From Lunularia cruciata (taxonomy: Eukaryota > Streptophyta > Marchantiopsida > Lunulariales > Lunulariaceae): a DNA stretch of 64,000 bases. This document shows positions 35,760-60,700 of the stretch, piece after piece. The notes under the pieces were generated by a model, which was not told where the DNA came from, did not search any database, and saw nothing but the letters and a program-made list of their open reading frames with translations. The translations under genes were made by a program, and so were the position numbers. The stretch lies in the NCBI GenBank assembly GCA_948567375.1, contig OX419756.1, positions 34,362,333 through 34,426,332 on the forward strand, given 5' to 3'. Every line of letters begins with the position of its first letter. The first letter of the stretch is position 1.

Positions 35760-36499
35760 ATATTCCAAGGATAGTAGAGAAACACAAAAGAGAAAACATG
35801 AGTTTCACTCTCAAACTTTGGTGCCCCAAGGGAGCACCTTCTCTTTATTATATAGCCAAAGAGGATCTCCTCCAAGGATGCTCCACCATAGGATTAGGTA
35901 CATGGATAGGTGACCTGTCAGCAAACTCCACCCTTAGAGTACTTGCTTGGATGGGTGACATGTTGATCCTGGTCCCATCTGGTTTGTCAAATAAGCTTCA
36001 ACCAGAAGGAATCTTTTAAAGGAATCTTCATATAAGAATCTCATAATCATGTGGGTGAGGTACCATTGGAAAGGTCTTGGTGAGACAAACCAGGGAGAGA
36101 GAAGTCCATCCTTTTCTCTATTGAGGAAGAATATATACACATTTTTGGGGCCTAATTCATCCGTTTAGGCCTCTAAAATTACCTCTAAAGTCTAGGCCTA
36201 TTTTGGTTTCTACTCTATCAGTAGAAGTGTGCTTTTGATGATACCTCTACCTGCTCTACCTCATCCATTATGTGTACCATCCTTCTAAATGTCACCAACC
36301 TAAATTCTACCTTTAAGTCATATGTCTAGCTATTGATTCTAAAGTCTTCAAGCATGTTTTGGTTTTTGGCCTATTAGTAGAAGTACTCTTTTGGTGATGC
36401 CTTTGTCTAATCTTCCTAGTCCATCATATATAACATCCTTCCAGATGTTACCAAACCAAATTTCATCTCTAGATCATATGTCTAGCTATTGGTATTACA
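35760..36499 (-). mobile_element. LTR-like repeat, inverted copy of 28401-29160
   Basis: Read on the minus strand, this block starts TGTAATACC at 36499 and follows the 28401-29160 block through the shared stretches around CATATGATCTAGAGATGAAA, AGTAGAAG, the TTTTTGGGGCC-like region and TATATAATAAAGAGAAGG. Moderate divergence indicates an old repeat family. The nearby dead coding relics may belong to the same element. Confidence 0.6.
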
Positions 36500-36599
36500 A
36501 TCTTTATATAGATTCTCCTATGCTTCCCAAAATTTGATTATATCCTTACAATATCTCAAATTATCTCCAAAACTCTCAAATATACCCAATGCATTTCCA

Positions 36600-43112: not shown

Positions 43113-43116
43113 TATC
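43113..43116. repeat. Target-site duplication TATC, left
   Basis: TATC directly precedes the terminal TG of the element on the plus strand and is repeated at 53058-53061 directly after the terminal CA. A 4-bp match is short evidence alone, but both copies lie exactly at canonical TG/CA ends. Confidence 0.6.
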
Positions 43117-43223
43117 TGTCGTGCATATATACATTGCTACACAACATACATTGCTGTCAACATCATACACTATAGAAGCACAACTCACACATAAGTCATA
43201 CATAGACTCTAAAGTGCCACAAT
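43117..43223 (-). repeat. B2, terminal copy of the B repeat
   Basis: The sequence is near-identical over 108 bp to B1 at 43673-43780, differing at a handful of positions that are all C/T transitions. It forms the very 3' end of the element, ending GCACGACA on the minus strand next to the TATC duplication. Confidence 0.85.
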
Positions 43224-43671
43224 AATCAGATTGCTTAACATTCTCCACTCAACTCAACTCAGATCAGTACTTGATCTATCACTCTATAAACTACCAACAA
43301 CTGGGCACTGATTACAGTTAAGCCACACCCACTCAAGCATAGAGAATCCAGGTGACGCTCGCCGGCCTCTGTCCACCATAGCCAGGAACTTGTAGGCTCA
43401 ACATCAGAGAAGTGAGCTCTCTAGAGCTCACCTTCGAAACTATACCCCTGGACTCGAGCTAGCCCTGAAACCCTAACGGTCCCGCTGACGGCACACTCGA
43501 CGGTGCAAACGGTGCAAAGTGACGGTGGGCCTCACCGTGAAGTCAGTACCCCGAACACCAAATCTGACCGTCGGAGAGTAGTCTCTGAGATACTACTGAA
43601 ATAACTCTAACTACTATCACTGGAACTCCAGTGTCCGAGCAACTAGATGCGGAACTACAAATGGCGTGATA
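43223..43671 (-). repeat. A2, internal copy of the A repeat
   Basis: The core 43223-43669 matches A1 core 52609-53055 with equal length (447 bp) and few substitutions; A1 begins TGTCACGCC and A2 TATCACGCC. It lies between B1 and B2. Confidence 0.9.
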
Positions 43672-43672
43672 G

Positions 43673-43780
43673 CTGTCGTGTGTATATACATCGCTACACA
43701 ACATACATCGCTGTCAACATCATACACTATAGAAGCACAACTCACACATAAGTCATACATAGACTCTAAAGTGCCACAAT
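43673..43780 (-). repeat. B1, copy of the B repeat beside the polypurine tract
   Basis: This 108-bp block starts directly after the polypurine tract on the minus strand (TTGTGGCACTTTAGAG) and ends CACGACAG before A2. No B copy exists next to A1 at the 5' end. Confidence 0.85.
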
Positions 43781-43790
43781 CGCCCCCCTA
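43781..43790 (-). promoter_or_regulatory. Polypurine tract (plus-strand primer)
   Basis: Minus-strand sequence TAGGGGGGCG directly precedes B1. The purine run is the expected RNase H-resistant primer for plus-strand DNA synthesis; the old copy has the equivalent GGGGG at 31125-31129. Its position implies that DNA synthesis starts at B1 and not at A2. Confidence 0.7.
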
Positions 43791-43947
43791 GATGGTGGTT
43801 AGGTCCCTCTAACTCCAGATAGCCATCTACTCTAAATATATGGTATACCCTCTAATGGGCAAAGATCAGGAGGCCGGGTGCTATGGAGCCCCATCATTAG
43901 TTGCCTGTCTGCAATCTATACCATATAAAGAATGAACTAGCTATAGG

Positions 43948-44352
43948 TCAAGTACATCTAGGACATAACCACTGTCCCTGAGGAACCACTGTGAGGGGAG
44001 GAGTCATACATGCCATATGCCATCCTCTCGAACAGCTATCACACACTAACATAGTAGCAGCTCCACTAGAAGAGCCACATAACATACACCTCAAGCCTGC
44101 ACGTACAAGTGCCAAGCTTGGGTCCATAGTACCATCAATGTTTGGAAGGTGGCATGGCGCACAATTGCGCACATGATCCTTCCAAACAACACCATCATGT
44201 CCTTCTAACACAAGGACTCCAGATGGCAAAACCTCGCGCACTCTCAAGATAGTGCGGCTTGTAGAAACATCAAGTGTTGTCGGTGTTGTCTGTTGTAGAT
44301 ATACATAGTCGCCTGGATGAAATCGACGGATCGAGGGTCTATAACCTCCTCC
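43948..44352 (-). CDS. Integrase C-terminal tail with PHD finger
   Basis: The frame follows the integrase after an integrase-tail motif (FHPGDYVYLQQ) and a GVLVLEG segment. Its last 45 residues are a complete C4HC3 PHD finger: CMLC, then CDSC, H four residues later in RGWHMAC, and a final CPRC preceded by Trp (GQWLCPRC). PHD fingers usually read histone H3 tails, above all unmodified or methylated Lys4. In chromoviruses a chromodomain holds this place and steers integration, so a role as targeting reader is inferred. The frame ends at TAG/TGA-free stop 43948 after CPRCT. One CGA to TGA stop at about 44352 separates it from upstream integrase sequence. Confidence 0.88.
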   Translation of the reverse strand, partial: GGGYRPSIRRFHPGDYVYLQQTTPTTLDVSTSRTILRVREVLPSGVLVLEGHDGVVWKDHVRNCAPCHLPNIDGTMDPSLALVRAGLRCMLCGSSSGAATMLVCDSCSRGWHMACMTPPLTVVPQGQWLCPRCT

Positions 44353-44505
44353 TCAAATGGTAGCATAACGTAAAGTATCTCTATGCTGAGCAATTGCCAA
44401 GTTCTCAAAAGCCATCGGCATCACTCTCCGAAAGATCTCTGCCCGCTAAGAACATGTGCTCATCCATACATCGGGGTCATCCAAGTCCAAAACTACAGTA
44501 GCATC

Positions 44506-45708
44506 TCAACAAATGGCTGCAGGTAAATCTGGATCTTGTCCATAGAGTAGAAAGTATGGAGAGAAGGATGCTAAGGAGGCTTGCCAGCTGAACCGATAGC
44601 CCATGGCCAACCAAGGTAACTGGAGATCCCAATCTCCCAAGTGGCCTCTTTGCAAACCATACTTTTGCAATCCTCTCTTCACCGTCTGAACCACTCTCTC
44701 TGCTAAGCCATCTGCCTCAGGGTGATCTTGGGATGTAGTATGATGATCAATCAAAGCCTTGTCACACAAGACCTGAAACTCTCCCAAGAACTCTGTACCC
44801 TGATCAGTCAAAACCTCAGCTGGTGCACCAAAATGACTAAGAACTTGATCCAAGAACGAGTAAGCTGTCCCTTCACTAGACTTGTCAGGAAGTGCCACCA
44901 ACTCAATCCACTTGGAGAAGTGCTCCACCATCACCAAAACATACCGATGATGTCTCACAGTCAACGGTAAAGGTCCGGTGAAGTCCAAACTCCAACGGTA
45001 ACCCAATCCCATGATAGGTAATGGGTGTAACTGTGGCGTAGGAGCATTGAATGATGCTCTAACTCGGTCACAAACAACACATCTGGCAACAAACTGATGT
45101 ACCTCGGTCTGCATACCGCGCCACCAATAATGACTCTGGAGTAAGCTATATGTATGCTTTACTCCAAAATGTCCTAGCTCCTCATGAGCATGACGGACCA
45201 ACTGTGGTCTCTGTGATGGAAGTGGTACTACTTGCACTCTACAATCCTCCCATACACGCAAAAGGTGTCTACTCTCCAATCTGAACCGTCTGGCTCGCTG
45301 AAGAACACGGTCTCTCTCCTTGGCCCCAACTGTGCCACCCACAACACCAGTGTGAAGATAGTCCATCACTAAGACATCATCATGAATGTGTCGCTGAACT
45401 GTACCAATATCTTCACTCTCTAGATCTGTGACCTCAATAACTCCTATATGCGCTAAGAGAGATACCACCAAAGTCTCTGCAAATATACACAGAAAGGCCG
45501 ATGCATGCCAACCTGGCACCATCTCCTCATCTGTCTCACCATGCCAACGTGCTCCGGTCTGATCCTGCTGGCTGGGACATGAGTTTCTACTCAACCCATC
45601 TGCATCACGGTTCACCACTCCAGGTTTGTGAACAACCGTGAAATCATACTCTTGTAAAATCAGAGCCCATCGTGCAAGCTTCCCTGAAAGCTTGTTGGAC
45701 TCCATCAA
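44506..45708 (-). CDS. RNase H C-terminus and D,D35E integrase
   Basis: A 400-residue open frame. Residues 1-45 finish RNase H with the KPGVVNRDADGLSR motif. The integrase zinc-binding region has His residues in HAHEELGHFGVKH (173-185) and Cys210/Cys213 in ARCVVCDRVR. The catalytic core follows: Asp242 in WSLDFTGPLP, Asp302 in VLTDQGTEF and Glu337 in DGLAERVV, a D,D35E spacing. The protein end continues, across a TGA at 44503-44505 shared by the old copy, into the tail that carries the PHD finger. Integrase joins cDNA to the host DNA and makes the short target duplication. Confidence 0.92.
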   Translation of the reverse strand: MMESNKLSGKLARWALILQEYDFTVVHKPGVVNRDADGLSRNSCPSQQDQTGARWHGETDEEMVPGWHASAFLCIFAETLVVSLLAHIGVIEVTDLESEDIGTVQRHIHDDVLVMDYLHTGVVGGTVGAKERDRVLQRARRFRLESRHLLRVWEDCRVQVVPLPSQRPQLVRHAHEELGHFGVKHTYSLLQSHYWWRGMQTEVHQFVARCVVCDRVRASFNAPTPQLHPLPIMGLGYRWSLDFTGPLPLTVRHHRYVLVMVEHFSKWIELVALPDKSSEGTAYSFLDQVLSHFGAPAEVLTDQGTEFLGEFQVLCDKALIDHHTTSQDHPEADGLAERVVQTVKRGLQKYGLQRGHLGDWDLQLPWLAMGYRFSWQASLASFSPYFLLYGQDPDLPAAIC

Positions 45709-45763
45709 CCACTTCAGCGGCTGATGATCAGTGATGAGAGTGAAGGGGTTACCAAATAGGTAA

Positions 45764-46852
45764 CATCAGAAATGTGCTACTGCCCAAACTGCTGCCAAGC
45801 ACTCTCCCTCATATGAACTATACTTCGCCTCCGCTGAATTGTTGGAGCGACTAGCATAGGCCACCACAAACTCCTTCACCTCATCATCATGCTGGGTGAG
45901 CACCGCTCCAAGCCCCAACATACTCCAATAAGTATGAACCTGAAATGGTCGTCCCTTGATCGGTCTCCTCAAAATAGGAGTAGATGTCAACATCTCCTGC
46001 TCTACAAAAGCTCTCTCCTGCTCATCTCCCCAACACCACTTCTGTGTAAGCTTGGTCAGCTTTGTCAAGGCCTTGGCAATGGCACTAAATCCTCTAACAT
46101 AGCGGCGATAGAAGTTCGCCAACCCAAGGAATGCTTGCACTCTGCTCACATCCGTAGACCGAGGAATATGTGCAATAGCCTCCACCTTGGTCTGCTGGAC
46201 ACCAAGTCCTCCAGGGTAGATAGTGTGACCCAAATACTCAACTTGCTCGTGGAAGAACCTACACTTCCCACGATGTAGTTTGAGTCCATGAGATCTCAAC
46301 CTCTCAAACACCTCCAACAACTGTCGCTCATGCTCTTCCACAGTAGTGCTATACACCAAAATGTCATCAATATAGCACCGAGCAAAATCCAGTTCAGCTA
46401 GGATCCTATCCATGACCCTCTGGAACTCAGCAAGAGCGTTCTTCAACCCAAATGGTAAGAACCTCCATTGATATAACACATCCTTGCCGTGAGGATCAAT
46501 AGCCCAAAATGCTGTTTTGGACTTATCTTCCTCCTTGATCGGCAACTAATGATATCTTGCTCAAAGATCCAAAGTACTGAAGACCTTTGCATGCCCAATC
46601 GCATCAAAAATCTCCTCCGGTGTAGGCATGGCATACCGATCAGCCCTGGTTTGTCGGTTGATAGGACGGTAATCTCCACACATCCGCCTATCTGTATAGT
46701 TGCAATGCATATCCTTCTTGGCTGGCATCACTGTCGCTGATGCATACTCTCCATGTGAAATCTTCACCAAACCAGCCTCAAAAAGGTCAATACTCCGGCT
46801 CTGAATCAATGTCCTCTCCATCTCACTATATCGATAAGGACATCAGAAAACT
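45764..46852 (-). pseudogene. Reverse transcriptase and RNase H N-terminus (broken by stops)
   Basis: The RT begins with CGDYRPINRQTRADRYAMP and the catalytic Asp region VFSTLDL, then FLPFGLKNALAEFQR and the active-site YIDD near 46374-46363. The thumb (EYLGHTIYPGG, FLGLANFYRRYVRGFS) and RNase H start (YASRSNNSAEAKYSSYEGECLA written here only as a position, near 45870-45800) follow. Stops: TGA just after F of VF near 46850, TGA and TAG near 46560 and 46547, and TGA at about 45763; all fit CGA or CAG with one C to T change. Without these changes the domain would be a normal Gypsy RT. Confidence 0.9.
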
Positions 46853-47052
46853 GGTGTGTCACTAGTCAGCTCAATCTGTATACCAGGTCCCTTCAGAGCA
46901 CCCAAATCCTTCATACTAAAGGCAAAACAACTTGTGTGACTCCTCAAGAACCTCCAAACCCTCCGTCTTTCCTCTCCAGTAAGCTTGGGTCCAAGATCTG
47001 GCTCCCAAGTATCCTCTGTAACTGTAGTAGGAGTGGAAGACGTACTGACTGG

Positions 47053-48456
47053 CTGCTACATTGGGCCCTTGGGAGCAATGGTGTCATGCTCCCGACCACT
47101 AGAGGTCCCAACCTCTGTGTGAAAAACTCCCTCCACTCTGGCTGCAAGCTCCATACGTCCTCTGGCTGCATCCCATGTGGACCAAGGGTGTAATCCAAGT
47201 AGCCCACGCTCACCTGGATGGACTCCAAGTAGACCACTCTCCCTAGTAGCTACTGGATGTGTCCCAAGAATACCATGTCCACTCGGTCCATCGCCCCCAG
47301 CATGTGCCTGAATCGTCTCGATAGGCACAGGGCTCACCAGTGTCCGAGTGGTGATGCCTATCAAGCACATCCTACGTTGCTTTGCCAAACCAAGGCTCAC
47401 AATCCAGGTCAAACAGTTCAGGTCCATAGCCTGACCTAACACCTGACGCCTGGATGCCTCTGACACTGCTGGAACAGCGGTAATACCGGTGCAAAAACCC
47501 ATCGCCCGCTCTCTCTCATCAGCATTGGGCTCCACCAATTGCTGTAACTGTGAGTCCCAAACAAGTCCAGGTCCTCCCTCTCGAAAAGCATGAGAGCTTG
47601 GGAAACTCATGAGTGTGGGAAATGCAGCTCTAGGCTGTCCAACTAGGTTCACCACTGCCATAGGTGACCTATCAGCCACTACCATTGTTTGAGACTGACG
47701 TCCAACATCCAAGATATCATCAACAAGAATGTGGTCTAGTCGCTGAATCCCATCATAACTACGCTGTAGAACCTCTCTGGGTAAAAGGTTTGTCCACCAA
47801 AGACGAAGACGATGAGCCCGTGATCCCACACTAGCTGCATTTAACAATACAACAGGTCCCATCCAAGAATGGACCTGATGTGTACTCGCCACCACTCTAG
47901 TGCGAGAATCCCCCATCAAAGGAATGTTCTCCAAAAGGTAAGCTGGAGAAACAGACTGATGAACTTGGAGATGTCGTAGTATCCGTAACATCTCCCAAAA
48001 CACACCAGAACGAGGATCCTGAAGACCCAAACCGTGGCCCGCACGTGCATGTCCTTGACATGGCCATCCAGAAATCACCAAGTGAATAGGCCCATGTCTC
48101 TCTAGATCATGCGCCCCCAGTAAGGAAATATCTCCTGGTAAGGCCTTCTGGTAACCTCTAACTGCTGACATCGGTAATAACTCCGGATACCAATAGGCCA
48201 AGTGTGCCACATGATGTAGAGAGACTCGCCTAGCAGTCTCATCTCTCTCCACATACAAGTACCTCTATACTCAGATACCCGCCTGTAACACCGCAGCTAG
48301 TCTGGTGCTGATCTCACCAAACAACTCCAATAGACATATTCCCTCTACTGGATACTGCCAAGCAATGAGTGTGGTATCCAGAGGTGTCAAAGCAATCGCC
48401 TCTGGAGGCTCATCCTCACACTCATCTCCTGATGGTACGAAGGCTCCACTCCAAGC
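47053..48456 (-). pseudogene. DNA (cytosine-5) methyltransferase domain in pol
   Basis: The domain lies between protease and RT. Motifs run in the unpermuted order: I (LLELFGEIST, near 48335), II-like (YLYVERDE), IV with catalytic Cys in SGWPCQGHARAG (Cys codon 48060-48058), VI (LLENIPLMGD), VIII (SRAHRLRLWWTNLLP), IX/X region (ERERAMGFCTGI and RQVLGQAMDLNCLTW). The order and the VGSRAHRLR and MGFCTG regions resemble DNMT3-type enzymes; the PCQ is also like bacterial enzymes. Stops at 48271-48273 (TGA) and 48265-48267 (TAG) are CAA codons in the old copy. The second Gly of motif I is Glu here but Gly in the old copy, so this copy should bind SAM poorly. Function by analogy: maintaining or placing methylation on element DNA. 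Confidence 0.9.
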
Positions 48457-48459
48457 CTA

Positions 48460-48672
48460 TTGCACCAACTGATCTGCATGCTGCTGCAATGCCTCCTCTG
48501 AACTCCACAATGGAACATCCAAGGTGGATGGAACAATCCCACTCGTACTCCATAGCCGAGTGATCTCCTCTGGTACTGGAGTATCCTCTGCATGGGCGTT
48601 CCCCTCCAACAAGTCACCAGGCCAAGTAACTGCACCGCTGAAAGCCAAAACTGATGCTGCCATGGTCCCAGA
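48460..48672 (-). other. Linker between protease and DNMT
   Basis: A frame of about 70 residues bounded by TAG codons at 48670-48672 and 48457-48459. It contains WSTSGIVPSTLDVPLWSS and no known domain. The TAG at 48457 is also a TAG in the old copy at the matching place (26470s), which makes it the best candidate for an ancestral stop. Confidence 0.5.
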
Positions 48673-49200
48673 CTATAGTGAGCCAAGACTGCCACTACTA
48701 AAGCGTACTGGTAAGCAACATACCCGTCCCTCACCAGACTGCCAACTAGGTCTATAAGAGGCTGTCTCCTCCCAATAGTCAATGCTGAAACCCATAGGGT
48801 ATAACACTGCTCTCCCAACTAGCACATCATATGACTTAGCTATCGTCGCAATAGCCTGAGCTCTCACCACCGAGCTATCAGTCGGATGACCAGGCTGAAC
48901 TTGGACAACAAGCTCTCCACGTGTGATGTACTGTGTCGAACCACCACCAAGAGATGTTTGGATCTGAAATGGACACCTCTCCACATTGGTCTTCCATAAC
49001 TCCAGACCAACAACTGTAGCCTTCCCCAACATAAGGGGCTGCGCACCAGAGTCTAACAAGACTCTCTGTGGTGTATAGACCTTCCTTGAAGGTCCCACCA
49101 AATGAAAGACCCCCTGGTTATCCAATAGGACAACACCAGGTGTAAACTGCACTCTCTCAAAGGCCGGTCTAGCTGGCAACTCCTCCAGTCTAGCCGCTGC
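48673..49200 (-). CDS. Retropepsin-type aspartic protease
   Basis: The open frame contains the protease active site DSGA in RVLLDSGAQPLMLG, at residues 43-46 counted from the Met at 49179, followed by a flap-like LGGGSTQY and a C-terminal VLVGRAVLYPMGFSIDY that resembles the second psi-loop (ILGxD-like). It lies after gag and before DNMT in the same reading direction. A TAG at about 49201 separates it from upstream sequence. It would cleave the polyprotein. Confidence 0.8.
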   Translation of the reverse strand, partial: AAARLEELPARPAFERVQFTPGVVLLDNQGVFHLVGPSRKVYTPQRVLLDSGAQPLMLGKATVVGLELWKTNVERCPFQIQTSLGGGSTQYITRGELVVQVQPGHPTDSSVVRAQAIATIAKSYDVLVGRAVLYPMGFSIDYWEETASYRPSWQSGEGRVCCLPVRFSSGSLGSL

Positions 49201-49203
49201 TGC

Positions 49204-49788
49204 CTACCATAAACCACTGATCGCTGAACGGATCCCATACTCCTCAACCAAGTCAGCTCCACTACCAACCACCTCTGCTCTAGTAGTAGGAACTGCACCA
49301 TCCCTACTCTCACACAATGTGGCAGCCAACCGGAACACTGGGGTTGGGTCAACTCCCAATGTAAACATGTCACTGGCTAAAAATAAAGGATGCCGCATAA
49401 TCAGCTGAGCCACCCCCAACATCATGCTAGACTCAGTCTGTGTAGTAGCAGGTGGCTGACTAGCAGGTAGTCCATCATGTACTCCATCACCACCTACCAC
49501 ACCTGCACTGGGATGTCTAGGAACCATGGATGTCGTCTGCAATGCCTCAGATAGCATGAAAGACTGGAGAAGTCTGACCTATCTCCCAACCTCTCCTCTC
49601 TGTGGGTCTAACTCCACTAATGCTCCTCTAGGCTCTGGAGCACGTACTGCACTCCTAGTCACTGCTGCAGATGCATCCACCTGTGCTGCTCCGCACATGA
49701 AGTCCAAAGCATCTCTATCACCAACATATGAGGTGGAAGCCTCAGCACCCGAATCTGATCTCCTCTGAGCAATAGCCATACTAGCCAA
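49204..49788 (-). other. Gag-protease linker, frame broken by two TAG codons
   Basis: The frame continues from gag through TAG at 49789-49791 and TAG near 49577 to the protease. It is rich in Ala, Val and Ser and has no recognised domain (for example EALQTTSMVPRHPSAG). Both stops fit CAG with one C to T change. Confidence 0.5.
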
Positions 49789-51138
49789 TCTCTACTCCAA
49801 CTGCTCAATCCGAGTAGCCATAGTTGTGTCAGAAGTAAGGGCAGGTACTGCACCCCTACTAGGTGTAGATCCTCTACCACCACCTCTTCCACCTCGTCCT
49901 CCATGAACTGGAGCTCCTCTACTACCTGCCATAGCAGCCCTACTACTCCGTAACTCCGGGTGTAGGTCAAAACACCGGTCACTAGTGTGACCAAATCTGT
50001 GGCAATGCTCACACTGCCTCTGTGCTGGCTGTGATGCACCAGAGGTATCAGGTCCGCTGCCCTGAGTACACTCTCTCCTATGGTGAGGTCCACCACAAGT
50101 CCAACAAGCAACACCACCACTCACTGGCTGCTGCTGACCCGAAAATGAGGGTAAGGGTCTAACTCCACTAGGCCCTCCACTCGCTCCATAGGATCTAGGC
50201 TGTCCACCTTGTCCTCGAAAACCAACTGGGCGTGGTGCACTCTGCTGCACTCTAGCAAAAGTCACAGCTGTGGATGAGGTCTCCCTACCAAATCCAGATG
50301 TCACCACTCTCTCCTCCACCATGTTGAGCTCAATATGCTTAGGCAAACCAAAGACTACTGCCAAAGTGGGTGAAGTAGCCTGCAACAATGTAGCATCACA
50401 AACTCTACGTCGCAACTCCCTATCCAGTATCCCATACCAAAACTGGACTGCTTGGGCCTCAGTAACTCCCTGAGTGAAACTGATCAGCCGCCTCATGCGA
50501 GTATATGCCTTGCGTAGGCTCTCTCCAGCCTTCCGCTGGAACTCCTGCAAGCTCCTCAGCTTGTCAGTCCGCACTCCCTGGTAGTTCTGCCTCAAACATA
50601 GGAAGAACTCAACCATGGGGTTAAACCACGGTACCACACCACCTCCTGCAGCGGTATCTCCACTTGTAGTAGCACTATCTCCAGCTAGTGCACCTCCACT
50701 AGCTCCACTAACACTACTCGAGCTAGAACTCGTGGGTATAGCCGATCTACTCCTGGCTACCAAGCCTGAAGTGATGGAGACATAGTGTGGAGACCAATAC
50801 TGTCTCCATAACTCAATCTCCTCCAAATGAGCTCTCCTGAACTCATGGTAGTCATCCATCAGTGGACCCTCCAAGTGCTGAAACAACCCCTTCCATGCCA
50901 TGAAGGGTGTGAACAAAGTCGGGTTCCGCATCTGCTGCAGATCACACCAACTATTGAACTCCTGGATGAAGTCATCCAACTCAATGGTACCCACTATACT
51001 AGAGTAACGCCTAGGGCCTTTGGAGGCCCCATAAATCTTGTCCATGTCCCACAACAACGGTGCGGACACACCAAGTGCACTCTCAATTGAATCAACTCCT
51101 GAACTCCAACTCAGAGTCAAACTCCAACTCAGAGTCAA
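49789..51138 (-). CDS. Gag with two CCHC zinc knuckles
   Basis: A 448-residue frame. Residues 50-250 form the capsid-like part, with IELDDFIQEFNSW and LRQNYQGVRTDKLRSLQEF, the latter close to the classic Gypsy gag pattern (W, then ...F ... M...). Two zinc knuckles follow: CWTCGGPHHRREC (345-357, one residue shorter than usual) and CEHCHRFGHTSDRC (376-389, canonical CX2CX4HX4C). A basic Gly/Arg-rich tail (residues 400-430) would bind RNA. The Met at 51138 is the first in frame but the N-terminus is uncertain because an 18-bp tandem duplication (51104-51139) lies exactly there. Confidence 0.88.
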
Positions 51139-51139
51139 T
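51104..51139. repeat. 18-bp tandem duplication at the gag start
   Basis: AACTCCAACTCAGAGTCA occurs twice in tandem. It spans the start of the gag frame and, in another frame, encodes a DSELEF repeat. Confidence 0.8.
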
Positions 51140-51814
51140 CTCCTCCCTCACTGGGACCTGAGATACAGGCTGATACCGAGCACCACTCCGAGTAAACCCA
51201 CTGCGTACTACAGGGCTAACTCCTTTGGAATCTCCAAAGAACTCCTTCGTGACCACGTAACTACAACAGCAAACCCGAACCACCAACTGCAACCGCAAGT
51301 CGCAACCGCAAGTACCCCACCAAGTGCCAACACCACCACGTGCCAACACCAACTAAACACCACCCACTAATGTAACTCTACCGAGATAACTACACTAGGG
51401 GAAGGGCAACCTGTAACCTGCCATCATAACACTTACTCTCACGGTCTGCAGGTCATCACTTCATGCCTCACCGGAGAGAAACAAAGGTAGTCTGACTGGT
51501 CATCACTCCAACCTCACCACCGAGAGCACACCAGAGCACCAACGCTCAAAAGTCAAGGCATCTCACACAAACATGGTGCACAAACAGGAAGCAGAGAATG
51601 GAGGGGATCCAATCACAAGAAATCTAAATGAAAACCCTCCATCTCATAACACAACACGGGACTGACTCTGCCACCATTTGGCATTTGACATAAGAGTAGT
51701 TCGTATCTAAGTCCTAAGCTACCAGGATCACCAAGAATGGGATCAAACTGCCTCTCTTAGCCAAAGCTACATGTGTATAGATAACAATGGCATAGTCACT
51801 ATGATAACAAGTGA

Positions 51815-51885
51815 GGGTAGACCAGTTGGATAGGGCACCAGTTTAGGAACAAGAGATCTAGGGGTCAAACCCTGTTGCGCACAAT
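51815..51885 (+). repeat. tRNA-like (SINE-head-like) segment, antisense in the leader
   Basis: The D-arm-like CAGTTGGATAGGGCACC and the T-arm-like GGGGTCAAACCC have the spacing of a tRNA, with an A-box-like TAGACCAGTTG and a degenerate B box. Acceptor-stem pairing is not seen. It resembles the head of a tRNA-derived SINE or a tRNA pseudogene, on the strand opposite to the element. Confidence 0.45.
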
Positions 51886-51987
51886 CTAGCAAGAAAGGCA
51901 GATTTTGCCAACCAATGACCAAGATCTACACTAAACTAGCTAGCCTCACGCCAGCAAGCTGGCTTGCTGGCCCTTCTAGGCCTTTGT

Positions 51988-52051
51988 AGCCTCTCATAGC
52001 CCATAGCCCTATGCCTCGAAGCCTCTCATAGCCCACAGCCCTATGCCTCGA
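51988..52051. repeat. 32-bp tandem duplication
   Basis: The unit AGCCTCTCATAGCCCATAGC plus a further 12 bases occurs twice with one mismatch, followed by the start of a third copy (AAGCCTCT). It lies in the leader of the DNMT/PHD element. Confidence 0.8.
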
Positions 52052-52608
52052 AGCCTCTAAACGCCAAATGAGACCTTTCTTGTTGCCACTTCAAACCTCC
52101 TCCAAAATTGGCGAAACTTCTCCAAATCTGCGAAACTCCTCCAAACTAGCAAAATTTCTCCAAATCTGGCCAAACAGCGAAACTCCTCCAATTCTGGCCC
52201 AAAATCTGACATAAACCCTAAAGATGGATGTCCGCCAAATCCCCCTCTAACTTTCCACTTGAGCCAAATTGACAAAATGGGTTTTTCCAAATCACAATTT
52301 TATTAGAAGAGCTTTCCAACTCCACCTTCAATTTCACTTTCTGAGCCCAACTTGCAGCAAATTGGTCCTGCCTTCACCTCTTGAGCTCAAAATCACAACA
52401 CTGCTCAAAAATTGCTCCTTCTTTGCTCAAAATTTGGCCAGCGCTTCCACACACCGTCCGACTAACTGCCAAATTTGCATCAACTACACGAGCTTCTGCA
52501 CACTAGGGAAACACAGAACCTGAATCGAGCTACCACGATCCACCGAGCTTGGAGATACCACCAACACTCAACGTTCCTATACCCAATTTCCCCCTGACTT
52601 CACTTCTC

Positions 52609-53057
52609 TAATCAGATTGCTTAACATTCTCTACTCAACTCAACTCAGATCAGTACTTGATCTATCACTCTATAAACTGCCAACAACTGGGCACTGATTA
52701 CAATCAAGCCACACCCACTCAAGCATAGAGAATCCAGGTGACGCTTGCCGGCCTCTGTCCACCATAGCCAGGAACTCGTAGGCTCAACATCAGAGAAGTG
52801 AGCTCTTTGGAGCTCACCTTCAAAACTATACCCCTGGACTCGAGCTAGCCCTGAAACCCTAACGGTCCCGCTGACGGCACACTCGATGGTGCAAACGGTG
52901 CAAAGTGACGGTGGGCCCCACCATGAAGTCAGTACCCCAAACACCAAATCTGACTGCCGGAAAGTAGTCTCTGAGATACTACTAAAATAACTCTAACTAC
53001 TATCACTGGAACTCTAGTGTCCGAGCAACTAGATGCGGAACTACAAATGGCGTGACA
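52609..53057 (-). repeat. A1, 5' terminal copy of the A repeat
   Basis: It starts TGTCACGCC at 53057 beside the TATC duplication and matches A2. On its inner side it ends at 52609 and goes directly into leader sequence, with no B copy, unlike A2, which is followed by B2. Confidence 0.9.
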
Positions 53058-53061
53058 TATC
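53058..53061. repeat. Target-site duplication TATC, right
   Basis: Second copy of the duplication at 43113-43116. Confidence 0.6.
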
Positions 53062-55833
53062 TTCAATTACCAACTAAGTCAAGGATTCATTCACATGAGT
53101 TATCTTTGGACTATAGAAAAATCCACACCAAAAATCTTGTGATCCAATAGTTCTCAACTCTATCTTCAAAGCAAAATAAATACAAGGATTAGTACCAAGT
53201 CAATACACTAAAAGATAAAATATTGATACTCACTCTTTTCCCTTCCTCTAGAATAGGATCACCTTTATCTTTGTTAGGACTAACTCTAGCTAATTATGAC
53301 TAATGCAGAAATTTGGCTGAATTCCATATAGATAATTTTTCTCAACTATTTAAAACACTAAACTTGATATCCCTATTGAGCATACATGCACTAATGGGTG
53401 TTATATTTACCCCCCATACGAAGATTTCAATTTGGAGCAAAGGTCCCTTTATTTTTTATGATACAACTTTAACTTGTCATGGTAAATCTTATCCAAGTGT
53501 ATTCTTCCAAACTCCTTGAGATCATAATTATAATTATCCCACACCTTTTCCACTATAAAAGGTCCAAAGTACTTAAGCAAGAACTTCTTTTGCACACTCT
53601 TGAATACAAAAAATTACACAATCACCTCCCTTGAAGGACTCTACCTCTTCTTGCCTTGCCTCTTATCATAACTCTCCTTTTTTTTCCTTTGGGCTTGCTC
53701 TACTCAAACTATAGCAATTGCTCTTGCCTCTTCCAAATCCATGAGTTGATACCTTCCTTGATTTTCTCTACATCACCTCCTATTCACTATGTATGCTTTG
53801 GAAGGTAGGAAGATCAAAGTGAGTATATCAATACCATATACCAAATGACATGGAGAATATTTGATGGATGTCTTCATAGTTATCCTATACTCTCACAAAA
53901 TTGCATGAATCCTCTTATCCCAATGATGTTTTTAACTCTCCATTTTTGCATCTTTGGCTAACATAATGCACAAGGTTTTACTGGTCCTTGCTCCCAAGCC
54001 ATCAGAGTTTGGCTTATAGATGCAGTCACTTTATGTGTGAAAGAGAAATGTCATAGTATGTTTATAGTGATACTTCTTGTAAACTCTCCTACTCTATCAC
54101 AAACCAACTCCAAAGGCAACTAAACCTAGTGATGATGCATTCATAAAAAAATCATCTAAAAACATAAAAATATCCTTTGAGCTTCATCTTCATTCTTGTC
54201 TCTCAATAGTTTAACCTCAACCCACTTAGTAAGGTAATTAATAACTATGAAAATATATTGATTGGTCCTTGTGGTTCTATTAAGAGGACCTACAAAGTCA
54301 AGTCCTCACTCCTCAAAAGGTCTTAGTAATGGAATTGATCTATGAAGTGGAGTGGAAGTAACATTTCTAGCAAATGCTTGACAAATATTACAAGTTTTTC
54401 AATAATCAAAACAATCCTTAAAAACTCTTCTCCAATAATAACTTGCATCTAGAATCTTGAAAGCGGTTACCTTTCATACAAAGTGATCTCCATATACTAA
54501 GCCTTCATGAAACTTCTTCATGAGTAAGATAGACTCCTCCTTACCCATTTTCCTTCAAAGTAGATTATCTACTCCTTGATGCAAAAGAATGTCCTCCACC
54601 ATTGTGTAAGGTCTAGATCTTGTTGCAAGGACCTTCCTCTCCTTAACATGCATCCTATTATGATAGTTACCTCTTGTAATAAAGTCTACAATCTCCTTGT
54701 ACTCCATTGGAATCTCTTGAGTACATGACATTATTATGAGCTCCTCATTTACAAAGGAATCATCCATTGACTCATCTCTATCATGATCATTGGCCCAAGA
54801 TAAAAAAACATCATTTTCACATTTCTTTCTTGGCCTATCCTCAATGGTGTAATCATATCCAAACAAGAGTATTATCCACCTTGCTAACCTTCCTTCTACA
54901 TTATCTTTGTTGAAGATGTACTTCAAAGTGTAATGGGTTGTGACAATGGTGATGTTTCCTCCAATCAAGTAGTGTTTGAATTTCTTGAAATAAAAAATCA
55001 CCATCAACTTCCCTTTTTATGATTGAATAGTTTCTCTCTATTGAGACCATTGGTCTACTAGCATAAGCTTTTGGATGATCATGCTCATCTTGGACAAATT
55101 GACAAAGACTATATCTTATAACTACATTGGAAGCATCAATGTAATGGATGAAAGGCTTCCTCCAATAAGGTTTGCAAGAACTAGAGCTATAACAAATGAT
55201 TGCTTGAGCTCCTTAAAAAATTTAAGAGCTTCCTTCTCTTCCAAAATCACCATGTATTCTACAACTTATTCATGTAGATGATCAATGCATAAGCCGTATT
55301 GGAAAATTAACGTCTTATAGTATCCAACCATCTCTAAGAATTGGTGTAACTTTGATAAGCTTGAAGGGAATGGAAGCTCTAAGATTTTCCTCACCTTTTC
55401 AAAATCCATTATTATTCCATCATTAGAAATGATATGCCTCAAAAGTAGACTTTCTTCACAACCAAAGATGCATTTCTTTGGGTTGAGTGATGCATTTGCC
55501 TCATCCAACCATTGCAATAACTTGATCAAGTGCTCAAAGTGCTCCTCCTTGCTCCCATAGACACAAGAGTAATCAATGAAATCTCTTACAAATTTTCCAA
55601 TGAAAGGTTCAAATAACTTATTCATGAAATATTGAAATGTGGCTACAACATTACAAAGCCCAAAAGGCATGACTTTGAAAACATAAGTTCCCCAAGATGT
55701 GGTAAATGTGAGTGATGAGTTGTTGATGCTTTGGTGCAATCTAAATTTGGTTGTAGCCACTATAACTAACCCCAAACTAGATCTTTGAACACTCTCAACC
55801 TCCTCTTAGATCTCATAAATGAATGGCAAGGGG
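53062..55833 (-). pseudogene. Relic Gypsy pol: RT, RNase H and integrase (family 2, left part)
   Basis: From the right: RT (PLPFIYEI, FTTSWGTYVFKVMPFGLCN, a decayed catalytic box FIDYS in place of YxDD, HIISNDGI), RNase H (THYTLKYIF, EGRLARWIILLFGYDYTIED), then a strongly decayed integrase whose C-terminal tail GPFIVEKVWDNYNYDLKEFG near 53.5 kb is typical of Gypsy integrases. Stops and frameshifts are frequent and the DNA is AT-rich, so the copy is old. The RT continues beyond the younger insertion at 61503. Confidence 0.8.
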
Positions 55834-55838: not shown

Positions 55839-56101
55839 TGTGACAACCCGGCAAATATCACTTTTGCGGTAATCGGGTAAGTAAAGTTTGTTCCCGCAGA
55901 GATACAAGTCAGAAATGTCCAAATACAAAGTAAAGTAACAATTTCAGTTCTTCTTGAGTTCTTCTTTAGTCTCTCAGGTAGAAACCACACCCAGAAGAGA
56001 GTAACAAGCACTGACTCGCAGTCTTGTCACAAATTCACACTCCTTAATCACAACTCCATCAAATCTTTCCAAACAATCTTGATTTGTGATGATTCAGGCT
56101 C
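55839..56101 (-). repeat. Truncated 3' LTR (263 bp)
   Basis: The block matches 57717-57980 of the 5' LTR up to GATTCAGGCTC, then changes abruptly to gag sequence. The few differences, such as GGGTTGTC against GGGTTTGTC, suggest that some time has passed since insertion. Confidence 0.85.
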
Positions 56102-57716: not shown

Positions 57717-60700
57717 TGTGACAAACCCGGCAAATATTGCTTTTGCGGTAATCGGGTAAGTAAAGTTCGTTCCCGCAGAGATACGAGTCAGAAATGTCCA
57801 AATACGAAGTAAAGTAACAATTTCAGTTCTTCTTGAGTTCTTCTTTAGTCTCTCAGGTAGAAACCACACCCAAAAGAGAGTAACAAGCATTGACTCGCAG
57901 TCTTGTTACAAATTCACACTCCTTAATCACAACTCCATCAAATCTTTCCAAACAATCTTGATTTGTGATGATTCAGGCTCTCCCAAAAACGGCACTTCAC
58001 TGCAAAATGACCTTGCCTCAGAATTGTGTTCCACCCTTCCACTGAAGGCACAACTTCCTCGATCAAAATTGCTTCACATCAACCTCACACTGTACTCACA
58101 AATGCAAAATACTACCAACACTACAATTCCTCTCAGATCTGTCAAGGCATTGCTTCGATTGCACTTCACTCAAGATCAAACACACAGAACGAAGATCAAG
58201 GCTGTGGAATCCAACATCCAACAAGCACTCTGACTTGCACTTTGAATTTCTCCAAACACTCACAAACACAATTACAAAGTTGATACTCGGAATCAAGCTC
58301 AAGCGACGAGCATTGCTTCACAACACTTCGCTTTATCTATTCTCAGAAATAATGAGCACTGAACAACAATTTCCTGCGAATGCTACTCTTAAATAGTGAA
58401 GCAAATCGACAGTTCTAACAACTATACCGTTCTACAACAATTGTTCTAACCTGCAGATCCGAAATGACAATGCACCTCTTCATATCTGCCCCTTTAAATC
58501 TCAAATCGGTTATAATCCGATCCGATGTCTACTTCTTCCTTGGCTTTCAAACCCAAACCCGAAGTAATCTTACTTCCTACTATTCTGTCCTCGGGTTTCA
58601 CAACTCCTACGTCTTCTACCAGATCCAGCAATTCTCTTTCATGATCTGAAATTGCACTAGCGGGTAATCTATCTAACTCTTCATCCTTCGACCCACTCTT
58701 CTCTAATGTCTCTAAGGGCAACTCCGAAGACATTTGGATCCCGATGTTATCTACTTTGGGTTTTGCTCTAACATCCTGCCGAAGCTTTTCTAACTCTATT
58801 CTTACTAAGTCTAATCTAATTGCGATATTGTCTTCTACTTCTAAGATCTTCCTATCTACACGAGTTCTCAATTTAATCAACAAGGCATTCAAATCTGTAT
58901 CTTTTGCTTGTCTTTGCCTCGTCTCCTGCACCAACAACTTCAACTTGTGCAGACGTGCTTCTTCAATTTGAACGCTGGCCTCTGTACTTAACATCATGTT
59001 TACCCTGAGGACTATCTCCTGCAATGGCTCTAATCTTGTCTTCCTTTCTTGTTCCCGATCTGCAAGCCATTCCTCTCTGTACATCGCCAATTCTTCTTCG
59101 AATTCGGCCTTCACCGCGTCCTTCTCTTTCTCCTTCTATGCAACCTTCTCTTCCTGATTACGAAGTAAGTCTCGTAATCTCTCTTCTTCTCTATATCTCG
59201 CAGCCAACTCTCGCTGCTAGAGTTGCTTCTTCTACTCCATACTCTCCATCACTCGATCTAGCTCTTGATCCTTCGATGCTACCCTCGCCATAGCATAGAT
59301 GAGCTCTACTCTTGAATCAGCAAACTACTGCTTCAAGATTTCAAATTCAGCTACTTGTCTCTCCCTTGCGACGTCACTCTTCCTCGCAAGATCCTCTCGA
59401 TAGCTCACTTCTCTCTTCAGGTCTTCGATTACCTGACTTCTCTCTACTGCTTCCGCTTGCAGTACTTCTCTCTCCTTCTCACCTCGGGTTATACTCTTCT
59501 TCAACTCCGAGTTTTCTTCTTCTAATCTCGCTACCACCTGCAATACAGTCTTTACCTCTGGACAAGTCGACTGCATCTCCTTCTTCTTCTTCTCCAACTT
59601 CACCAACAGCGGGCATACTACCATCTACAGGTAATCTACTCCATTACTGATACCTTCGTCCTCCCGCGGAGTAGTCTCTCTTCTTTCTTTGTGTTCTCCC
59701 GATACTCGCCGTCTTCTCTGGAGTCTTCATATCGGAATTGATGCCTCACTGCCCGAGCTTCCTTCTACCTCTTCCTTCACTCTACTCGGTCCCGCTTCAC
59801 ACTTCGCCTTACGTCTCGAGCAAATTCCTCGCTGTACTGCAATCTTCTTCTCCTCGAGCACCAGTACTTCATCTTCTAGCGCCGCATTGTCTTTGGCTTC
59901 TACTTTGGCTTGAATTTCTTCTTCGTATTCTTCAGCCGCTAGTGCCGAGGTCATTTCTCCACCGTCTTCACTGTCACTGCTTGTATCTCCGCTCTGCAGT
60001 GTCAGCTCAGGTTCCTCCTCACGTTCCGAGTCCTCCGTCTTGAGCTCGGCTTTGCCTTCTGAGTCTTCATCTTCCGACTCAATCACCACCATTCCTCGCC
60101 TTGGGTTATTTTTCTGCATCTTCCGAGGTTTCTTGCTTTCTTCGGCGTCTGCTTGCCGAGTTCTCTTCTTCGTTGGGGTACTTTCAACGACCTCCACGTT
60201 CTTCCCTGTCTTTGCGTAGTAATCGTCTGTGCTCCGGATTGGGAGAATGTATTGCTGCTCCTCCGCGTCGACTTCTCTTCTCAAATCAGGATGGAAATGA
60301 GACACCATTCGATTATGCTCAACCACATTGAGCAGATTTAACCCGAGGTAAAATGGGCTGCAAATGGTACGATGTAGTGTGGAGGCGACTTATCTCGCAG
60401 ATTCCACACCATCTGCCTCGTTCTTCCGTGAAAGCACCTTGCCCAATTTATCGGTTCTCCTACAAATAACTTGTGAAAGAACACTGCTTGGTGTTCATCA
60501 CATAGGTAGTTCTCTTCGGCTTCAGGAGGGCCATTAGTGCACTCACAATTCCCCTCCTCACTGGGTCCTTATAACTCTCAACTTTATACCCATTCTTCGT
60601 CCTCTTCAACGAGAAGGCATCTCTCACCTCCTGTGTTTCTTGGGCTATCTCTCCTTTCCCCAAGAACGTGGCTCCCTGCTCCGAGCCTGCCTCCTTCCCG

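What the first reader, a model, noticed from the sequence alone, without database searches (positions are those of the whole stretch)
43117..53057. Gypsy-type retrotransposon that carries both a cytosine-5 DNA methyltransferase and a PHD finger
Seen: in one element and one direction, Gag, DSG protease, a DNMT domain (PCQ and ENI motifs in normal order), YIDD RT, RNase H, D,D35E integrase and a complete C4HC3 PHD finger. Known: DNMT capture by retrotransposons has been reported in charophytes and dinoflagellates, and chromodomains occur at integrase C-termini. Inference: the element brings both a writer of DNA methylation and a chromatin reader, possibly to target marked chromatin and to keep its own copies methylated, a strategy that would avoid harm to the host or protect the copies.
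Basis: partly seen in the sequence, partly recalled or inferred. Interest (0 to 1): 0.95.

Follow-up and report, generated by a model that had tools for sequence, protein, structure and literature searches.

The report
Jumping gene with methylase and chromatin-reader
A plant jumping gene present in many copies carries both a DNA-methylating enzyme and a chromatin-reading zinc finger on its integrase, a pairing also found in green algae and liverworts that could let the element mark its own DNA and choose where it lands.

Summary
A 9.9-kb Ty3/Gypsy element (43117-53057, minus strand, TSD GATA) encodes Gag, protease, a Dnmt3-like cytosine methyltransferase (DNMT), RT, RNase H, DDE integrase and a C4HC3 PHD finger. 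Neither extra domain is a stray host fragment: the PHD piece matches end to end in 150 of 150 scored places of the same genome, DNMT borders RT in 30 of 30 distinct copies tested, and 130 of 329 fetched related proteins hold both in one ORF. Gypsy elements with a Dnmt3 and DIRS-like repeats are known from Klebsormidium (KnitGypsy-Dnmt3, 2018); the PHD partner is not mentioned in that paper's main text. Added here: (1) DNMT ends ORF1 (Gag-PR-DNMT) at a conserved UAG-CARYYA leaky-stop context; ORF2 is RT-RH-INT-PHD. (2) Repeats are split (A-interior-B-A-B) as in DIRS, yet ends are TG...CA with exact 4-bp target duplications (18 of 20 copies), and the inner B/A junction is usually a 10-bp palindrome, suggesting that integrase opens circular cDNA there. 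(3) Copies decay by C-to-T at CG and CHG sites. Self-methylation and chromatin targeting remain inference.

The parts
43117..53057 (-). whole element, TG...CA
   Evidence: ends compared with 20 other copies
53058..53061 (.). target duplication GATA, upstream side
   Evidence: read
43113..43116 (.). target duplication GATA, downstream side
   Evidence: read
52609..53057 (-). repeat A1 (5' end)
   Evidence: 429 of 447 positions equal to A2
51148..52608 (-). leader between A1 and the open Gag frame
49792..51147 (-). Gag frame with two CCHC knuckles (50106-50068 and 50013-49972)
   Evidence: no Pfam hit
48673..49203 (-). protease region, LLDSGA at 49059-49042
47059..48380 (-). Dnmt3-like cytosine methyltransferase; motif I 48330-48310, PCQ 48069-48052, ENI 47937-47923, RAHRLRLWW 47820-47794
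47056..47058 (-). UAG at the ORF1/ORF2 border, followed by CAGCCA (47050-47055)
45766..47055 (-). reverse transcriptase (YIDD near 46374-46363) and start of RNase H; broken frame
44506..45765 (-). rest of RNase H, H2C2 and DDE integrase core
43951..44352 (-). integrase C-terminal part and PHD finger (44088-43954)
43781..43790 (-). purine-tract-like TAGGGGGGCG directly before B1
43674..43780 (-). repeat B1
43668..43677 (-). inner B1/A2 junction; GACAGCTATC here, GACAGCTGTC in 15 of 20 other copies
43224..43671 (-). repeat A2 (the base at 43223 may belong to A2 or B2)
43117..43223 (-). repeat B2 (3' end)

Best explanation
One decayed copy of a large Ty3/Gypsy retrotransposon family whose normal equipment includes a Dnmt3-like DNA methyltransferase and an integrase tipped with a PHD finger. 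Shown: domain content, two-ORF layout, split repeats, target duplications, multi-copy state, both domains in relatives. Inferred working: ORF1 makes Gag-protease-DNMT in bulk; a leaky UAG gives a minority of product that continues into RT-RNase H-integrase-PHD. The DNMT, carried into the particle with Gag, can methylate the double-stranded cDNA. Reverse transcription, primed beside A1 and at the purine tract beside B1, gives B-A-interior-B-A; its ends are joined to a circle, and integrase opens the circle at one palindromic B/A junction (GACA-GC-TGTC), giving A-interior-B-A-B with CA-3' ends that it joins to a target with a 4-bp stagger. The PHD finger on integrase contacts the histone H3 tail and biases where this happens, as chromodomains are thought to do in chromoviruses.
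For: Domains. Family trait: PHD piece 150 of 150 scored; DNMT/RT border in 30 distinct copies. ORF1 open over 1428 aa in two copies (table, pieces); ORF2 of 1037 aa in 19 of 150 rows. UAG-CARYYA in 27 of 30 distinct copies; type I readthrough context per PMC5382211 passages. B-A-B in 28 of 30 loci, A without B at 20 of 20 5' ends, exact 4-bp duplication in 18 of 20 against 3 of 380 mispaired. A-interior-B form with GTAG on both sides (L012) and solo A-B with ACCT on both sides (L098), both expected if B/A is the cut site. Zinc ligands of the PHD invariant in 33 of 33 aligned rows, all picked because they carry that domain. Retrotransposon DNMTs methylate CG de novo in yeast (PMC5890265 abstract).
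Against: No activity, binding, particle or circle was observed. L020, the other A-interior-B form, has no target duplication; L012 and L098 could also come from B-B and A-A recombination. The TG start of A2 is TA in this copy and in L045; NN of the junction is not GC in 4 of 20 copies. In 11 of 20 copies some foreign A is closer than the own partner, in 3 of them five or more. Within-genome ratios show only weak constraint on DNMT (0.54). The UAG context is UAGCAGCUU, UAACAGCCA or UAGCAGCAA in 3 of 30 copies, and one relative (P0129) reads DNMT straight into RT.
Confidence: 0.6

Rival explanations
1. DNMT and PHD are passengers: fragments picked up once and copied along without use.
For: Replacement/silent ratios between copies of this genome are high (DNMT 0.54 in 27 copies, RT start 0.67 in 24, INT 0.60 in 5), and only 6 of 27 DNMT pieces lack a stop.
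Against: RT and INT, which the element needs, show the same ratios, as expected for young copies decaying after insertion. DNMT is 61-72% identical over 74-91% of its length to the two best relatives, with motif residues kept in 90% or more of 36 aligned rows, and the DNMT-PHD pair recurs in 130 of 329 proteins.
Confidence: 0.1
2. The split repeats come from linear cDNA made by an unusual priming scheme; no circle is involved, and integrase acts on linear ends as in other Gypsy elements.
For: TG...CA ends and 4-bp duplications are those of ordinary linear integration.
Against: Neither genomic end abuts the purine tract or the leader; these abut B1 and A1 on their inner sides, and the A2/B2 joint is one fixed end-to-end fusion in 20 of 20 copies.
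Confidence: 0.3
3. The DNMT serves another end: methylating element RNA, competing DNA or host chromatin, rather than the element's own cDNA.
For: Such roles are discussed in PMC5890265 (RNA, passage) and PMC6338049 (defence against DNA viruses, passage).
Against: The best solved-structure match is DNMT3A, a DNA enzyme; tRNA-methylating DNMT2 scores far lower.
Confidence: 0.2
4. The DNMT or PHD seen here is a host gene fused by chance to this one copy.
For: The genome has Dnmt3-like and DRM-like genes of its own (L001, L002).
Against: Copies elsewhere in the genome carry the same DNMT and PHD.
Confidence: 0.01

Closest known systems
KnitGypsy-Dnmt3 of Klebsormidium nitens (de Mendoza et al. 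2018, PMC5890265)
   Same: Gypsy domains with a normal-order Dnmt3 and repeats arranged as in DIRS (text and Fig. 4 legend)
   Different: There the DNMT is said to lie in the Pol ORF; here it ends ORF1 before a UAG. PHD does not occur in that paper's main text; its figures and supplements were not seen, so a PHD there is not excluded. No sequence comparison was possible.
DIRS/PAT tyrosine-recombinase retrotransposons, including SymbioDIRS-Dnmt3
   Same: A-coding-B-A-B repeats; SymbioDIRS also carries a Dnmt3
   Different: DDE integrase instead of tyrosine recombinase, and 4-bp target duplications
Chromoviruses
   Same: Gypsy element with a chromatin-reader module at the integrase C-terminus
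   Different: PHD finger instead of chromodomain; DNMT; split repeats
Unnamed RT-RNase H-DNMT-integrase-PHD polyproteins of green algae (e.g. Haematococcus lacustris P0313, P0315, P0320)
   Same: DNMT and PHD with Gypsy RT and integrase
   Different: DNMT lies between RNase H and integrase, and falls on the other side of the DNMT tree

Membership tests
Ty3/Gypsy LTR retrotransposon | RT-RNase H before a DDE integrase | tested here: met
Ty3/Gypsy LTR retrotransposon | TG...CA ends and short target duplication | tested here: met
   4 bp exact in 18 of 20 copies and in the window copy
Ty3/Gypsy LTR retrotransposon | the same LTR at both ends | tested here: not met
   A at 20 of 20 5' ends, B-A-B at 28 of 30 3' ends
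KnitGypsy-Dnmt3 | Gypsy domains with a normal-order Dnmt3-like DNMT | tested here: met
KnitGypsy-Dnmt3 | DIRS-like A-coding-B-A-B repeats | tested here: met
KnitGypsy-Dnmt3 | DNMT within the Pol ORF | tested here: not met
   stop between DNMT and RT in 30 of 30 distinct copies
KnitGypsy-Dnmt3 | common descent with the Klebsormidium element | not tested
   no named Klebsormidium protein among the 120 rows listed in each or the 95
DIRS/PAT element | tyrosine recombinase | tested here: not met
   Pfam scan of nine ORFs found rve, no tyrosine recombinase
DIRS/PAT element | split direct repeats | tested here: met
Chromovirus | chromodomain at the integrase C-terminus | tested here: not met
   PHD found, no chromodomain in the scanned ORFs
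Dnmt3-type DNA methyltransferase | PF00145 domain with PCQ and ENV/ENI motifs in normal order | tested here: met
   ENI in this copy, ENV in 26 of the 30 copy stretches (4 with neither found or no frame)
Dnmt3-type DNA methyltransferase | closest to Dnmt3 among eukaryotic DNMTs | tested here: inconclusive
   DNMT3A is the best sequence match among solved structures (8.8e-7); the tree holds only one host Dnmt3 as outgroup
PHD finger | C4HC3 zinc ligands | tested here: met
   ligands invariant in 33 of 33 rows, picked for having the domain
PHD finger | binding to a histone H3 tail | not testable with these tools
   sequence resembles CHD4, PHF12 and KDM5 fingers

The most novel reading that the evidence does not exclude
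A green-lineage Gypsy clade, defined by a PHD-tipped integrase and a captured Dnmt3, integrates not from the ends of linear cDNA but from a circle that its DDE integrase opens at a permanent palindromic inner junction (GACA-GC-TGTC). In the bryophyte branch it delivers the DNMT at Gag dosage through a leaky UAG, so that a writer and a reader of chromatin marks act on each new insertion.
Probability: 0.3. Interest if true: 0.85.

Novelty: new variant of a known kind. Interest (0 to 1): 0.66.

Why it matters
DNMT capture by retrotransposons was reported from dinoflagellates and one charophyte, and one opinion paper states that such transposons are not present in land plants such as tracheophytes (PMC6338049 passage). 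Here a DNMT plus a likely histone-tail reader is standard kit of Gypsy elements in green algae, liverworts and moss, in high copy number in one plant genome. That makes two questions testable: whether a genomic parasite gains from methylating its own DNA and choosing its chromatin, and whether a DDE integrase can use a circle junction.

Tried and rejected
Rejected: chance fusion with a host gene; tyrosine-recombinase element; chromovirus; ordinary LTR pair. A relative among viral contigs was not found (one pattern match, none confirmed). Within-genome replacement/silent ratios did not settle selection; the low PHD value (0.10 in 28 copies) is biased, because those loci were picked as the best protein matches. 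CpG depletion (element 0.41, other parts of the window 0.19-0.73) does not single out the element. No tRNA and no Rfam match in the window. The integrase tree clusters the layouts but does not split them cleanly. The DNMT model of a relative (P0001; 36 rows, mean pLDDT 72.5, pTM 0.75) was obtained, but its fold search was never accepted, nor was a model of the PHD piece. The B1/A2 junction count and a DNMT-protein search of the own genome did not complete. Host species not identified.
Full report
What is there. The element runs on the minus strand from 53057 (TG) to 43117 (CA), 9,941 bp, with GATA on both sides. Pfam finds PHD, integrase, RNase H, RT and DNA_methylase on that strand; Gag knuckles and a DSGA protease motif are read directly. 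This copy is broken in Gag-PR-DNMT, RT, RNase H and integrase; the PHD piece is open. A1 and A2 differ at 18 of 447 positions, B1 and B2 at 5 of 111, of which the last four bases compare junction with flank.

It is a family trait. The host genome (566 Mb, 74 contigs, unnamed) gave 123 scored DNA_methylase hits out of 2161 first-look candidates. Of the first eight loci, L001 is a host Dnmt3-like gene, L002 a DRM-like rearranged one, L005-L008 are this family, and L003-L004 were not resolved. Reading the two tables together, I find at least 20 DNMT/PHD pairs 3.3-4.6 kb apart on one strand. Exact 21-23-base junctions occur 2535 (A2/B2), 1259 (A1/interior) and 1260 (interior/B1) times, with reversed controls of 0. 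Of eight A2/B2 places that I chose because the capped list showed no A1 partner, seven have B upstream of A, so are 3' ends of longer elements, and one, L098, is a solo A-B with ACCT on both sides (the script's pattern missed its end, which I read from the printed flank).

Two ORFs and a leaky stop. A frame of 1428 aa over the DNMT is open in two rows; pieces of these copies show Gag, DSGA and DNMT motifs in that frame. A frame of 1037 aa, RT-RH-INT-PHD, is listed in 19 of 150 rows and was read in L059. The DNMT/RT border has a stop in 33 of 33 rows, which are 30 distinct copies, three having been fetched twice; five further loci in that script do not span the border. UAG-CARYYA holds in 27 of the 30; the others read UAGCAGCUU, UAACAGCCA and UAGCAGCAA. 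This is the type I readthrough context of tobamoviruses (PMC5382211, passages). So DNMT would be made with Gag, in excess over Pol; that is inference, and readthrough was not shown.

Repeats and ends. A1 lies at the 5' end, B1-A2-B2 at the 3' end. B-A-B is present in 28 of 30 PHD loci, the window copy included; the other two, L012 and L020, stop exactly at the CA of B1. At 20 of 20 5' ends A stands without B. Exact 4-bp duplications flank 18 of 20 copies; of the two misses, L045/L018 matches over 3 bp and L054/L028 differs at one of four; mispaired ends match in 3 of 380. The B1/A2 junction reads CGACA-NN-TGTC: NN is GC in 16 of 20, and the full palindrome GACAGCTGTC stands in 15 of 20; the A2/B2 joint is the same in 20 of 20. 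L012 has GTAG on both sides; L020 does not match. A1 and A2 of one copy differ by a median 1.8%, against 2.7% between copies; in 9 of 20 no foreign copy is closer than the own partner, in 3 of 20 five or more are. For B the two medians are equal (99.07%), so B tells nothing. The purine tract abuts B1 and the leader abuts A1, so standard reverse transcription would give B-A-interior-B-A. The genomic form is that molecule closed to a circle and reopened at B/A. A cut after CA on each strand of GACA-GC-TGTC would leave the two-base 5' overhangs usual for processed retroviral ends (general knowledge of integrases, not tested).

Relatives. DNMT search: 182 proteins, 120 listed, with names from Calypogeia fissa, Sphagnum, Riccia sorocarpa and Marchantia polymorpha. 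PHD-module search: 95 proteins, among them Marchantia Mp_7g09570 and Volvox reticuliferus. Search with the DNMT of a long polyprotein: 216 proteins, 120 listed with the query itself, of which 104 carry PF00628 by my reading of the table, including Haematococcus lacustris (only the 8000 candidates sharing most words were scored, and only proteins of similar length qualify). Over all 329 fetched proteins, DNMT and PHD share an ORF in 130: RT-RH-DNMT-INT-PHD 90, DNMT-INT-PHD 31, RH-DNMT-INT-PHD 7, DNMT-RT-RH-INT-PHD 2; the rest are mostly single-domain pieces or ORF2-like proteins without DNMT. In a tree of 72 DNMT rows, a random and hand-picked subset, the 35 rows on one side are 26 with DNMT between RNase H and integrase, 8 with DNMT next to integrase and 1 alone; the 36 rows on the other side hold this family, 4 with DNMT before RT and 31 alone (SH-aLRT 87 and 82; quick method, one long outgroup). 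The host is probably a liverwort from these neighbours; it was not identified.

Methylation. Between A1 and A2 of 20 copies there are 148 transitions and 24 transversions; per background C the rate is 8.5% in CG (64 of 756), 5.6% in CHG (58 of 1038) and 1.0% in CHH (26 of 2679). Copies have therefore probably been methylated in CG and CHG. CHG methylation is the work of host chromomethylases in plants (general knowledge), so this does not show activity of the element's enzyme.

What is known. PMC5890265 (parts 1 and 2 of 7 read, and passages; figures and supplements not seen) reports KnitGypsy-Dnmt3 with DIRS-like repeats and Gypsy domains, purifying selection on its DNMT, and de novo CG methylation by retrotransposon DNMTs. 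The word PHD does not occur in its main text. Full-text searches listed no paper whose title or abstract start describes a DNMT-plus-PHD Gypsy element; these cover open-licence papers only, the listings are partly capped, and I opened only PMC5890265, PMC6338049 and, for readthrough, PMC5382211.

Verdict. The functional reading (write and read marks for safe insertion) is plausible and untested. The split repeats with target duplications, the palindromic junction and the leaky stop are the parts most worth following.

Noticed in passing
window 54555-55805 (-): Remnants of a second retroelement (RT and RNase H-like frames, AT-rich) lie just upstream of the element on the same strand; judged by eye, not scanned.
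   Followed up: no
window 55845-56101 and 57724-57980: A 257-bp direct repeat, 97% identical, 1.9 kb apart: perhaps the terminal repeats of a short or non-autonomous element.
   Followed up: no
window 36196-36504: A 153-bp near-tandem duplication, 74% identical.
   Followed up: no
L017: Two PHD ends of the family lie face to face within 3.4 kb, so copies insert close to or into each other.
   Followed up: no
flanks of L045/L018 and L051/L025: The flanks resemble coding parts of the same family, so these copies seem to be inserted inside other copies.
   Followed up: no
A1/interior border in the 20 copies: The border reads CTGATTACATCAGAG, a short hairpin-like inverted repeat that could matter for priming; the window copy lacks CATCA.
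   Followed up: no
P0028 and P0124: A DNMT-only protein and an RT-INT-PHD protein both come from ENA with a longest contig of 6232 bases, perhaps one contig with the same two-ORF layout.
   Followed up: no
P0301: A polyprotein of this kind is filed under a Minisyncoccia bacterium MAG; probably misbinned eukaryotic DNA.
   Followed up: no
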